From contig PABV01000033.1 in assembly GCA_002699425.1 (NCBI GenBank), positions 70,614 through 103,537 on the forward strand: a DNA stretch of 32,924 nt. Reading direction: 5' to 3'. Shown one piece after another: positions 16,749-29,910 of this stretch. Below the pieces are notes generated by a model, which was not told the DNA's origin, made no database searches, and worked only from the letters and a program-made list of their open reading frames with translations. Source of the stretch: Methanobacteriota archaeon. GTDB taxonomy: Archaea > Thermoplasmatota > Poseidoniia > Poseidoniales > Poseidoniaceae. The first letter of the stretch is position 1. Every line of letters begins with the position of its first letter. The position numbers were made by a program, and so were the translations under genes.

Positions 16749-19541
16749 ATGCATGTGTTCTGTCCCTTTTGCACACTTGAAGTCGAGGACCACGTTTTGG
16801 TCTGCGACCATTGTGGTAGCGACCTTTCAGGGATCCTCAGTTTAGTGAGTAATCAGAGCCAGACTAATGAGGATGATTCCTCGATTCAAGTAAATCTCTC
16901 AGATACAGCAGTAGCAGGAGATGTGAACATTACTCAAAGTCTTCAAGCAGATACCGAGCAAATTGTGGAAAAGTTGGTGAATCAACTTGACCGTTTTGAT
17001 ATCAATAAACCCGGTTTAGCGGTTCCTGAAGACGGTTTTTCTCGACTTGATGTTGAAGCGGCTATACCCTTGGTTCGCGAAGATATGAACATTCTCAAAG
17101 GCATGACCTCTCCTTCTCTTTTGCAATTTGGAAAATTACTCGATTCGATGGGATGGCCAAAAATTGCTCAGAGAATTTCAAAGATTCTTCTCGAAAGAGA
17201 TGATGTGAAAACCAATCCATTATGGCATGCACGATCACATTTGATTATGTCTCGTTCATCCGGAGAATTATTTGAGCATTCACTAGCCATTAAACATGCA
17301 GACATGGCAGCAGAAATAGCCCAAGCCTCAGATCTCAAAGAAGTTGAAGCCTATGCACTCTATCTTTCTATTGACAAGCGAAATGATCTCTCAAGAGATA
17401 CCAGTGTTCAAGGAACTCGAACTGAATTGTTATTGGAGTCAGCAGGTGTTGATGGAGGAGAAACTGGAGCATGGTGCCATCTTGCTTTATCCCGATACCT
17501 TGATGCTGTTAATCCAGATGTTGCAGAGCATCATGAGGCCATGGGGTTCCAACATGCAAGCAATCACAATGACCTTGAAGCCATGGTCGCAACTTTGTTA
17601 GCCACTGCAGAAAATAAAATTTGGACCATTAAAGAGGGGTTTTGGACGGTTGTCAAAGATGATGCGGATACCAATGGATTATCCTCTTATTCGATGTTGG
17701 TTGATTTAGCCAATTTTGTCCGTCAAGAGTCTAAAGAGCAATTGCTTGCAGGTATTCGTACACTTACTCGCCACGCTCATGGAAGAGAAATGAAAGAAAT
17801 GGAGCATCTTTCCATTCTGTTGTCAGCAATTATTTCCATCCAATCGATGATGGAAGAAACAAAACCGGGGCAATCGGAGAGGCAGGAGCGATTATCTCAA
17901 ATTCTTGATGAGGAATCAACCCAAATTGTGTTTGATGAAGTGCTGACAAGGTCATATCATGGATTTGATCAGGCTTTATTGTATCATTTCATTTTGCTCG
18001 AACTCTCAGGTACATCGCTACCTTCTGCTGCTAGAGGTTATTTGTCGATGAAACGTGACTTCTCTAATGATTCTATTAAGGCCATGATGCATCTATATGA
18101 AACGTATCAAAATAATTCAGGAGACCTTCAAGATGCCTTCAATAAAACGGTTGATTTCCTTGAATCTACCAAACTTACCGCAGATGATTCGTCTTGGGTA
18201 CTGCTCAATGAAATATCACAAATTAAACGGGTTCAATACGCTACCCCAGAACTACCAGAACATCGCCAGGAACGCCGAGATAATTTTTCCAATGTGCATG
18301 AGGTTGTTTGGTCTCGTCGAAGATTAGGCATTGGTACATTTGTGTGCATGTTTGGGCTTCTCTTTGTATTGAATGACCCTGACTTTTTAATCGATTGGTT
18401 AAATGAACATATCGTAACTTCAGGGGTACTACTCTCTCTTAACGAAGGCTTCTTTGGTGAGCTAAATCATACGCCTAAGTCTTGCTCAGATGGGCTTGGC
18501 CACCGTTTTTTCACATGGAGATGTGACACAATATTTCAATTCAACTTTATCATGACAGGGCTATTTTGGGGAATGATTACATGTTTTATGCTCAGATTAT
18601 TTGTTGGGGGACCCAAGAAAATTCTCAAATCTTCAAATAAAATTGGATTCTCTAAACTCAGGGGAATAGGAATATGGTTCACGTTGCAATCAATTCTCAT
18701 TCTTTTATTATTAGTTTATTTGATTGGAACCATATTTATGAGATTAGATGGCCGATTCCATTCAAGAGTATTTATTGATGATTTCTACCTTATCTTGATA
18801 CTTATAGCGTTTATTTTTGTTTTATTATGTGCTATTTTTGAAATTAGAGAATATACTAAAGGAAAAATTTCAGGAATTCGAACTGTTGCTTCAATTATGA
18901 CCATTTGTTTCTTTTTGTTATTTGTTATTCTTCTCTCTTCTGCAAAAACCGATTTGTATGGAGAGAGTTCTAGTTATGGCCTCATAAATGGCTTCGCACC
19001 AGAGATAACTGGTCAAACTAATTATGTTGGGGGTGCTGATTATGTTGGTTTTCAAACAATTAACGGTGAGACGTTGTTATATGATGAAAATGGAAGGCAA
19101 TTACTTATGAAACGAGAAGTGTTCGATTCATCAACTTCTAGTGTTCATAATTACTTGCAGAGATGTCAGTATACCTCGCAAGTAGATTTTGCTGTAGAAT
19201 GTGATTATGGCTCTTCAGATGAAGGCTGGATTGTTACTGCATATATGGTGGAGGCTCATGTTGAGAAAATAGAGTATGACATAGCAGTATCGTATTACTT
19301 GGGAATTTCGATGTATATTTTTGTATTTGGATCTTGGGCGCTCTTACTTTTCACAAAACTCCATCAAAAACAGACTTTGGTTAATCTTGCTGGTAGCGGG
19401 TTGATTATCAGTATGTTATTTGGCCAAGTACTCGATAATAAAGTCTCAATTATGATCTCTTCTTTTGTCCTTGGAATTATGTTCTACACGCAATGGGTTT
19501 TGCCTTGGAAAGAAGAAGATCCTAAGGAGGTGCATGCTTAA
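16749..19541 (+). CDS. Large zinc-ribbon, helical-repeat and multi-pass membrane protein, unknown function
   Basis: The 930-residue product has three parts. Residues 1-25 form a zinc ribbon, FCPFC (C5, C8) and VCDHCG (C19, C22). Residues 46-63 form a beta-type motif, IQVNLSDTAVAGDVNITQ. About 100-500 is all-helical and looks like irregular TPR/HEAT-like repeats. Eight predicted membrane helices follow, near 526-543, 600-620, 640-665, 678-698, 711-731, 850-870, 878-893 and 899-918. The loop at about 735-845 may lie outside and holds two cysteines (806, 818). Coding DNA for the membrane part is visibly richer in A/T than the first half. Its TAA shares a base with the next gene's ATG. No known function is assigned. 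Confidence 0.75.
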   Translation: MHVFCPFCTLEVEDHVLVCDHCGSDLSGILSLVSNQSQTNEDDSSIQVNLSDTAVAGDVNITQSLQADTEQIVEKLVNQLDRFDINKPGLAVPEDGFSRLDVEAAIPLVREDMNILKGMTSPSLLQFGKLLDSMGWPKIAQRISKILLERDDVKTNPLWHARSHLIMSRSSGELFEHSLAIKHADMAAEIAQASDLKEVEAYALYLSIDKRNDLSRDTSVQGTRTELLLESAGVDGGETGAWCHLALSRYLDAVNPDVAEHHEAMGFQHASNHNDLEAMVATLLATAENKIWTIKEGFWTVVKDDADTNGLSSYSMLVDLANFVRQESKEQLLAGIRTLTRHAHGREMKEMEHLSILLSAIISIQSMMEETKPGQSERQERLSQILDEESTQIVFDEVLTRSYHGFDQALLYHFILLELSGTSLPSAARGYLSMKRDFSNDSIKAMMHLYETYQNNSGDLQDAFNKTVDFLESTKLTADDSSWVLLNEISQIKRVQYATPELPEHRQERRDNFSNVHEVVWSRRRLGIGTFVCMFGLLFVLNDPDFLIDWLNEHIVTSGVLLSLNEGFFGELNHTPKSCSDGLGHRFFTWRCDTIFQFNFIMTGLFWGMITCFMLRLFVGGPKKILKSSNKIGFSKLRGIGIWFTLQSILILLLLVYLIGTIFMRLDGRFHSRVFIDDFYLILILIAFIFVLLCAIFEIREYTKGKISGIRTVASIMTICFFLLFVILLSSAKTDLYGESSSYGLINGFAPEITGQTNYVGGADYVGFQTINGETLLYDENGRQLLMKREVFDSSTSSVHNYLQRCQYTSQVDFAVECDYGSSDEGWIVTAYMVEAHVEKIEYDIAVSYYLGISMYIFVFGSWALLLFTKLHQKQTLVNLAGSGLIISMLFGQVLDNKVSIMISSFVLGIMFYTQWVLPWKEEDPKEVHA

Positions 19542-28523: not shown

Positions 28524-29477
28524 ATGAGCGACACAGTCATCTCACCTGATGGAAAATGGATGTGGAACGGTAGCGAATGGCTTCCAGCACCTCCTGGAAC
28601 CGAGCCAACGTCTTCATCTGAAAAGCCTACTTTTTCTCCAGATGGCGAATATCTTTGGGCTGCAGGTGATTGGATTCCAGCACCTCCTAAAGAAGGAGAA
28701 AAACCGGCATCTCTCAAACCTGATGATGGCACACAATCTCCAGAAATGAATGAAGCCTCAGAATCAAAACAGGATGATATCATTGTAATCCTTGCCGAAG
28801 GGATTCGTCAACTGGGCCTTGCTGATGAAAATACACTACGTCCTCTGCAATTAGCAGATGGTTCTGAGATGGAATTGAAAATAGGAGCAAGAGTTCTTGT
28901 GAATTGGAGAGGTAGGGGGCATTTTTACTATGCAGATATCCACTATATCCACGATGATGAAGAATTGTATGATGTGACCTATGACAAGGGAGATACTGAA
29001 CAGAAAATCAAACCAGAGCATATTCGTCATGCCTTTGAATTGAATATCGGAGATCGTGTTGCTGCAGATTGGCGAAGCCAGGGTCATTATTTCCTTGGAA
29101 GGATTGCTGCAGCACATCCAGATCACTCCTTCATGGTGCAATTTGATGACGGTGATGAGGAAGATGATATTCGTTTAAGCCGAATTCTTATCGTCGATGA
29201 TGAGGAATCAGAGTCTGTGAGTTATATGGAAGCAATCCTTGAATTCAGACAACTTATCGAGATGTTTCATGAAGTTGACTTTGACCAAACAGGTGTCATT
29301 ACAAGCCATCATTTACTCGAATTGATGAATCGCAGAAAAGGTGAAATTTTAGATAAAGACGTTTTCATGAAGTTCTTTGATGATTTCAACATTGGCATGG
29401 ATCTCGAAATTGATTACCGTCGATTTGCAAAATTATTGCTGCTCAAACCGCCAGAAAAGCCTCAATTCGAAGGCTGA
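28524..29477 (+). CDS. SPDG-repeat, tandem Tudor-like and EF-hand-like protein, unknown function
   Basis: The 317-residue soluble protein has an unusual domain order. Two short repeats, SPDGKWMWNGSEWLPAPP (7-24) and SPDGEYLWAAGDWIPAPP (38-55), are followed by a polar linker. Two Tudor/agenet-like barrels follow: about 119-168 (IGARVLVNWRGRGHFYYADI, then YDVTYDKGD) and about 175-222 (IGDRVAADWRSQGHYFLGRI, then FMVQFDDGDEEDDI). The C-terminus (about 240-307) looks like an EF-hand pair; the first loop is DFDQTGVITSHH (252-263) with D, D, T and G in the expected places but His at position 12, and the second is more decayed. ATG at 28524 is chosen; 28515 is possible. It begins 50 bases after glutamine synthetase. 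Confidence 0.7.
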   Translation: MSDTVISPDGKWMWNGSEWLPAPPGTEPTSSSEKPTFSPDGEYLWAAGDWIPAPPKEGEKPASLKPDDGTQSPEMNEASESKQDDIIVILAEGIRQLGLADENTLRPLQLADGSEMELKIGARVLVNWRGRGHFYYADIHYIHDDEELYDVTYDKGDTEQKIKPEHIRHAFELNIGDRVAADWRSQGHYFLGRIAAAHPDHSFMVQFDDGDEEDDIRLSRILIVDDEESESVSYMEAILEFRQLIEMFHEVDFDQTGVITSHHLLELMNRRKGEILDKDVFMKFFDDFNIGMDLEIDYRRFAKLLLLKPPEKPQFEG

Positions 29478-29586: not shown

Positions 29587-29910
29587 CTAGTCTACTAGCG
29601 TTTCTAACATCCATGAATAGTAGGCTTGAGTGGTTGTTTCCTTATTGTAAACAATTTGTGGAATATCATATGGGTGAGCCTGGTCAAGATATGCAATCAA
29701 TTGCTCAAGTTTACTCAGTGTCGTTTTCAAGGTGATTTTCCATTCTGCATCGTGTTGTAATTCTCCTTTCCACATGTAACTAGAATCGATTCGTTGTGAT
29801 TGACTGCAAGCGCATAATCCCTGTTCGATTGGTGAAGATCGGAATTTCATCACATCATTATCGCTTAAGTTTCCCGGAAGTGTCGTAGTGACCACAGCAA
29901 TGTTGTACAT
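29587..29910 (-). CDS. cutA: CutA-like divalent cation tolerance protein
   Basis: The 107-residue product matches the CutA1 trimer family: an N-terminal strand (NIAVVTTTLPG), a middle CACSQSQRIDSSYMWKGELQ that matches the family's YRW-KG region, WKITLKTTLSKLEQLIAYL, then HPYDIPQIV, the family's HPYEVPEI motif, and the C-terminal YYSWMLETL. CutA proteins are widespread small trimers linked to copper tolerance in E. coli; their true role is unsettled and in some lineages they interact with nitrogen or metabolic regulators. It diverges from the photolyase-like gene, with an inverted repeat in the shared 82-base gap. Confidence 0.87.
   Translation of the reverse strand: MYNIAVVTTTLPGNLSDNDVMKFRSSPIEQGLCACSQSQRIDSSYMWKGELQHDAEWKITLKTTLSKLEQLIAYLDQAHPYDIPQIVYNKETTTQAYYSWMLETLVD

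What the first reader, a model, noticed from the sequence alone, without database searches (positions are those of the whole stretch)
28524..29477. Archaeal protein combining SPDG/W repeats, tandem Tudor-like barrels and an EF-hand-like pair
Tudor-like and EF-hand domains together are unusual outside eukaryotes. Both barrels share a strong internal pattern (IG-RV-W-GH-Y then a D-GD acidic turn), so they look like a duplication. The EF-hand loop at residues 252-263 keeps D, D, T, G and I but has His at position 12, so calcium binding may be weak. The SPDG-W-PAPP repeats at the front appear twice. No enzyme motif is present, which suggests a reader or adaptor, perhaps calcium-tuned.
Basis: partly seen in the sequence, partly recalled or inferred. 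Interest (0 to 1): 0.8.

Follow-up and report, generated by a model that had tools for sequence, protein, structure and literature searches.

The report
Archaeal Tudor plus calmodulin-lobe adaptor protein
A protein made only by a group of ocean archaea joins two domain types best known from eukaryotes, methyl-mark-reading Tudor barrels and a calmodulin-like lobe that seems to have lost its calcium sites, and most likely acts as an internal docking adaptor rather than a calcium sensor.

Summary
Window 28524-29477 (+) encodes a 317-aa protein with two SPDG-W-PAPP repeats, two Tudor-type barrels (T1 121-170, T2 176-223) and an EF-hand pair (229-306). Tudor models pass Pfam cut-offs, and AlphaFold2 gives both barrels and both helix-loop-helix units; the closest solved folds are the 53BP1 and KDM4A double Tudors. 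The family recurs in both families of the marine order Poseidoniales (about 82 of 293 genomes; all 80 retained hits in an 85,000-species collection), single-cell genomes included, and was found in no other order of its phylum. Relatives usually carry extra barrels. The EF pair resembles the calmodulin C-lobe (family profile E 4e-20), but its second loop has lost calcium ligands family-wide and its first keeps an acidic position 12 in under half. "Calcium-tuned" is therefore not supported. T2's W, F/Y, F/Y, Asp cage is invariant in 50 sequences. Most Poseidoniales lack histones and none of 29 had a SET domain, so any methylated partner is non-histone. Relatives lie beside, or are fused to, an unassigned coiled-coil protein. 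Most likely: a cytosolic, calcium-independent peptide-binding adaptor. The window copy is a shortened, fast-evolving member at a conserved position before a photolyase-related gene.

The parts
28524..29477 (+). 317-aa Tudor/EF-hand protein (P0001), start ATG 28524
   Evidence: start matches family N-termini
28542..28595 (+). first SPDG-W-PAPP repeat (residues 7-24)
   Evidence: predicted beta hairpin 12-14/19-21
28635..28688 (+). second SPDG-W-PAPP repeat (residues 38-55)
   Evidence: predicted beta hairpin 43-46/49-52
28752..28811 (+). helix 77-96, counterpart of the family's 'AVxxAVIxALxxLG' helix; the preceding DSVIGGD motif is worn down here
28884..29033 (+). Tudor-type barrel T1 (residues 121-170); keeps three aromatics W128, Y135, Y153, but Lys155 where 53BP1 has D1521
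29049..29192 (+). Tudor-type barrel T2 (residues 176-223); cage W183, F190, F207, D209 invariant as aromatic/aromatic/aromatic/Asp in 50 sequences
29208..29441 (+). calmodulin C-lobe-like EF-hand pair (residues 229-306)
29277..29312 (+). EF1 loop DFDQTGVITSHH (252-263), His at position 12
29388..29423 (+). EF2 loop (289-300) NIGMDLEIDYRR: ligand positions 1 and 3 lost

Best explanation
It is a member of a Poseidoniales-specific family of cytosolic adaptor proteins. Tandem Tudor barrels bind a basic, probably methylated (Lys or Arg) peptide of a non-histone partner through the aromatic cage of T2. The calmodulin C-lobe-like EF pair, having lost calcium coordination, docks another helix without calcium, as the calcium-free lobes of myosin essential light chains do (analogy from general knowledge). 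The small N-terminal modules (SPDG hairpins or zinc ribbon, interchangeable) add a further contact. In many relatives the protein works with a coiled-coil scaffold protein and a small helical protein, which are its neighbours or fused to it. Shown: domains, predicted folds, recurrence, cage conservation, loss of calcium ligands, conserved neighbours and fusion. Inferred: the ligand, the docking role and the scaffold function. The window copy is a shortened, fast-evolving member.
For: Tudor and fold matches. Family recurrence, including single-cell genomes. Cage residues W183, 190, 207 and D209 invariant in type over 50 sequences. Profile match to the calmodulin C-lobe, E 4e-20, with 54 bits against the C-lobe and 23 against the N-lobe of the same chain. 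Non-canonical calcium loops while sister proteins keep canonical ones. No hydrophobic segment, no Cys, net charge -34. A 173-aa helical gene lies near the family gene in 17 of 70 loci and a 407-aa coiled-coil gene in 14; the latter is fused N-terminally in L093 and L102. The two co-occur in 72 of 82 genomes.
Against: No binding partner or ligand is known. T1 has Lys in place of the cage Asp, and 53BP1 Y1523 is Asp in both barrels, so the cage is incomplete. No SET domain in 29 genomes (that control rings in only 1 of 14 genomes) and histones over the cut-off in only 2 of 59, so no obvious writer or classical target. In the window's own genome neither copy of the family adjoins the coiled-coil gene, and the co-occurrence test is confounded by phylogeny. 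About 30% of relatives could still bind one calcium at EF1.
Confidence: 0.5

Rival explanations
1. A calcium-tuned reader: EF1 binds calcium weakly and changes the affinity of the Tudor pair for its peptide.
For: EF1 keeps Asp1, Gly6 and Ile8 in all sequences, and 21 of 70 relatives keep acceptable ligands at 1, 3, 5 and 12. Poseidoniales have many calcium-competent EF-hand proteins.
Against: EF2 has lost ligands 1 and 3 family-wide; EF1 position 12 is Lys in 22 of 50 and His in the window copy.
Confidence: 0.15
2. The Tudor barrels bind nucleic acid (KOW/Tudor-like RNA or DNA contact), so the protein works on chromosomes or RNA.
For: Some Tudor domains bind DNA (stated in PMC5906684), and fold searches also return Spt5-type barrels.
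Against: The protein is very acidic (net -34 over 317 aa, T2 alone -7), and the aromatic cage is what is conserved.
Confidence: 0.12
3. A degenerate, dying copy: the window gene is a decaying duplicate of the canonical copy on contigs C42/C8, with no function of its own.
For: Very long branch (2.6 changes per site), loss of the C-terminal domains, a canonical copy elsewhere in the genome, and no counterpart found in the one other genome of the genus (that genome is 76% complete).
Against: The 317-codon frame is open, all fold-critical and T2 cage residues are kept, and the gene sits at a position conserved for the family in other genera.
Confidence: 0.18

Closest known systems
53BP1 and KDM4A (JMJD2A) tandem/double Tudor domains
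   Same: Tandem Tudor fold; profile E 7.5e-7 to KDM4A; Foldseek E 8e-5 to 53BP1; W, Y/F, F, D cage positions
   Different: No demethylase or BRCT parts; the Y1523 wall of the cage is Asp; no histones in most of these archaea; EF-hand lobe attached
Calmodulin C-lobe / essential light chain type EF-hand pair
   Same: Spacing, helices and beta-bridge; family profile E 4e-20 to calmodulin
   Different: A single lobe inside a larger protein; calcium ligands lost in loop 2 and incomplete in loop 1
Prokaryotic chromo-like domains (Kaur et al. 2018, PMC5906684)
   Same: Tandem aromatic-cage barrels in prokaryotes; EF-hand combinations reported
   Different: Those are described as secreted, in bacteria and only rarely in euryarchaea; here no secretion signal is visible, and the protein is order-specific with conserved neighbours
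Prokaryotic calmodulin-like EF-hand proteins (PMC7016017)
   Same: Calmodulin-like EF dyad fused to other domains in prokaryotes
   Different: The passages read list no Tudor fusion and no archaeal case; those are presumed calcium-binding

Membership tests
Tudor-like (Royal family) domains | Profile match above curated cut-off | tested here: met
   Tudor_5 38.9 bits against 31; Tudor_3, 53-BP1 Tudor and BAHCC1 Tudor also pass
Tudor-like (Royal family) domains | Five-stranded SH3-like barrel | tested here: met
   AlphaFold2 strands 123-169 and 178-223, pLDDT about 85-94; Foldseek to 53BP1, SETDB1, ADCP1
Tudor-like (Royal family) domains | Aromatic cage | tested here: inconclusive
   T2 has three aromatics plus Asp invariant, but the fourth aromatic wall (53BP1 Y1523) is Asp; T1 has Lys for the cage Asp
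Tudor-like (Royal family) domains | Binding of methylated Lys or Arg | not testable with these tools
   needs a binding assay
Calmodulin-superfamily EF-hand pair | Paired helix-loop-helix with beta-bridge | tested here: met
   H229-251, E258-260, H261-272, H278-287, E295-297, H298-306
Calmodulin-superfamily EF-hand pair | Sequence homology | tested here: met
   E 4e-20 to calmodulin with the family profile; EF-hand_6 / EF-hand_1 above cut-off in relatives; window copy alone below the EF-hand_7 cut-off
Calmodulin-superfamily EF-hand pair | Canonical calcium-coordinating residues 1,3,5,7,9,12 in both loops | tested here: not met
   loop 2 lacks 1 and 3, loop 1 has His at 12
Secreted bacterial chromo-like proteins (PMC5906684) | Signal peptide / secretion | tested here: not met
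   No hydrophobic segment near the N-terminus, no Cys in the window copy; hydropathy only, no signal-peptide predictor run
Histone-mark readers | Histones present as target | tested here: not met
   PF00808 absent from G000 and over the cut-off in only 2 of 59 relatives; controls ring in three archaea

The most novel reading that the evidence does not exclude
Poseidoniales run a cytosolic protein-methylation reading system without histones, in which Tudor-barrel proteins recruit methylated proteins to a coiled-coil scaffold through a calcium-blind calmodulin lobe; this would be a protein-methyl signalling module in archaea independent of chromatin.
Probability: 0.15. Interest if true: 0.85.

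Novelty: new variant of a known kind. Interest (0 to 1): 0.5.

Why it matters
Tudor readers and calmodulin lobes are textbook parts of eukaryotic signalling. An archaeal order that fuses them in a protein without a visible export signal, without histones in most species and without working calcium loops, offers a test of what such readers bind when there is no chromatin. The conserved coiled-coil partner gives a concrete complex to look for in one of the most abundant archaeal groups of the surface ocean.

Tried and rejected
A single-sequence genome scan found no relative and was replaced by profile searches. Viral origin: no relatives in viral contigs or phages. Defence role: no PADLOC match for this protein or its partners. 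SPFH/band-7 identity of the 407-aa partner was suspected by eye but not confirmed: no Pfam, NCBIfam or useful PDB match, and PF13421 rings at other loci; it is left as unassigned coiled-coil. A C-terminal remnant in the 515-bp gap downstream of the gene was looked for and not found. Assembly or binning artefact: rejected, since single-cell genomes carry the family and the window neighbourhood is shared with other MAGs.

Full report
Observation. The ORF at 28524-29477 (+) is open and 317 aa long. The N-terminus carries two copies of an SPDG...W....W.PAPP repeat (residues 7-24 and 38-55), which align better than all 2000 shuffles, as do the two barrels. Pfam finds Tudor_5, Tudor_3, BAHCC1-like and 53-BP1 Tudor above cut-off and EF-hand_7 below it; single-sequence search of the PDB finds KDM4A double Tudor (8.8e-5) and calmodulin (0.01). 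AlphaFold2 with 50 aligned sequences gives barrels at 121-170 and 176-223 with block pLDDT about 85-94 and an EF pair at 229-306 with block pLDDT 62-90; pTM is 0.41, so the relative placement of the domains is not determined. Foldseek puts 53BP1, SETDB1, ADCP1 and BAHCC1 tandem Tudor/Agenet structures first.

Family. One search of 293 Poseidoniales genomes gave matches in 118, of which I count about 82 with a Tudor2/EF match at E<1e-9; the rest match mainly through the SPDG unit. A survey of 390 genomes of the phylum found it only in Poseidoniales, plus one Tudor-only match in the same class. A scan of 84,980 species genomes gave 109 relatives; the 80 best, all that were kept, are Poseidoniales or 'Euryarchaeota' marine records, with several single-cell genomes. 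That scan starts from short peptide patterns, so distant relatives elsewhere are not excluded. Of 70 proteins read in full or nearly so, 51 begin with SPDG and about 13 with a zinc ribbon instead; 60 continue into a beta-rich region ending in GPTGW, most of these followed by a C-terminal barrel that is Tudor-knot by Pfam and matches the MRG2 chromodomain at TM 0.86. Some carry an extra inserted domain. The window copy lacks the 'SPTN' barrel and everything after the EF pair. Over its tandem Tudor it is 41-49% identical to barrels 2 and 3 of the zinc-ribbon group.

EF-hand. The family profile matches calmodulin at E 4e-20, the C-lobe with 54 bits and the N-lobe with 23 in the same chain. In 50 sequences EF1 keeps Asp1, Gly6 and Ile8 throughout, but position 5 is Thr/Ser and position 12 is Lys in 22 and Glu in 21. 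EF2 has Gly at position 1 in 44 of 50 and mostly Gly/Ser/Glu at position 3. Other EF-hand proteins of the same archaea have canonical DxDxDGxIxxxE loops, and EF-hand pairs are found in all 39 genomes tested, 14 places in the window's genome. So the fold has been kept and calcium binding largely lost in this family, which speaks for calcium-independent docking.

Tudor cage. By alignment with 53BP1 (W1495, Y1502, F1519, D1521, Y1523; residue numbers from general knowledge) T2 has W183, F190, F207, D209 and D211. The first four are invariant in type over 50 sequences. T1 has W128, Y135 and Y153, but Lys155 at the Asp position. This is compatible with a methylated-amine pocket in T2, but not proof. 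Histone-fold genes are over the cut-off in only 2 of 59 relatives and absent from the window's genome, and SET domains were not found in 29 (its control rings in only one genome). Other archaeal methyltransferase types were not searched. The protein is strongly acidic, which argues against nucleic acid.

Context. In 17 of 70 loci a 173-aa helical protein gene lies next to or close to the family gene, and in 14 a 407-aa protein with a long coiled coil (by inspection of its sequence) follows. In L093 and L102 (860 aa) the 407-aa protein is fused N-terminally to the Tudor-EF protein; the matches of G145 and G172 in long frames (866 and 861 aa) suggest the same fusion there. This linkage covers both Poseidoniales families. 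The two proteins co-occur in 72 of 82 genomes (odds ratio 13.9, p 1e-17), but clades are shared, so the p-value overstates independence. The window's genome holds the coiled-coil/helical pair on contig C40 away from both copies. It also has a second, canonical copy whose two ends lie on C42 and C8 with an identical overlap.

Position and history of the window copy. The order DUF92-type gene, 487-aa gene, ALDH, MsrA, one intervening gene, Tudor-EF, photolyase-related gene is shared with L088, L101, L121, L125 and L132, with the outermost gene missing in one. The intervening gene is GlnA in the window and an MMPL-type transporter in the others. In the tree of the Tudor2-EF core the window protein has a branch of 2.6 changes per site and no supported place; grouping it with the syntenic clade is not rejected (p-AU 0.14), nor with its own canonical copy (0.09). 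So it is probably the fast-evolving positional counterpart of those genes, but descent from a separate duplication cannot be excluded.

Comparison with the literature. Chromo-like domains in bacteria, rarely in euryarchaea, are described as secreted, sometimes with EF-hands (PMC5906684). Calmodulin-like EF dyads in bacteria with many fusions are described in PMC7016017. A survey of archaeal families mentions calcium-binding domains in modules specific to each Poseidoniales family (PMC9258230). I found no description of this fusion, but only open-licence papers were searchable. The parts are known; the combination, its apparent cytosolic setting, the lost calcium sites and the conserved partner are new as far as I could check.

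Noticed in passing
L055:5694-6914 (-) and L055:6922-7440 (-); fused form L093:6321-8900: A conserved gene pair, a 407-aa coiled-coil protein plus a 173-aa helical protein, with no convincing match in Pfam, NCBIfam, PADLOC or PDB; also present in the window's genome (L159:8609-10387).
   Followed up: partly
window 16749-19541 (+): A 930-aa membrane protein whose N-terminal zinc ribbon plus 'SDTAVAGDVNI' stretch resembles the N-terminal module of the zinc-ribbon Tudor-EF relatives (tblastn E 0.001); the module seems to be shuffled among Poseidoniales proteins, as is SPDG (L150).
   Followed up: partly
whole genome G000 and relatives: EF-hand_7 pairs are very common in Poseidoniales (39 of 39 genomes; 14 places in G000), many with canonical calcium loops.
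   Followed up: partly
G064 C15:11936-12180: A histone-fold gene, split in two matches, in one Poseidoniaceae genome of a group otherwise mostly without histones.
   Followed up: no
L014, L017, L077 and similar, between GPTGW and the final barrel: An inserted domain 'VQGAGTxKCNGTY...GDYYRVKSSSDTPPxxGW' in part of the family; not identified.
   Followed up: no
window 29587-29910 (-): A 107-aa ORF in the gap between the gene and the photolyase-related gene; not examined further.
   Followed up: no
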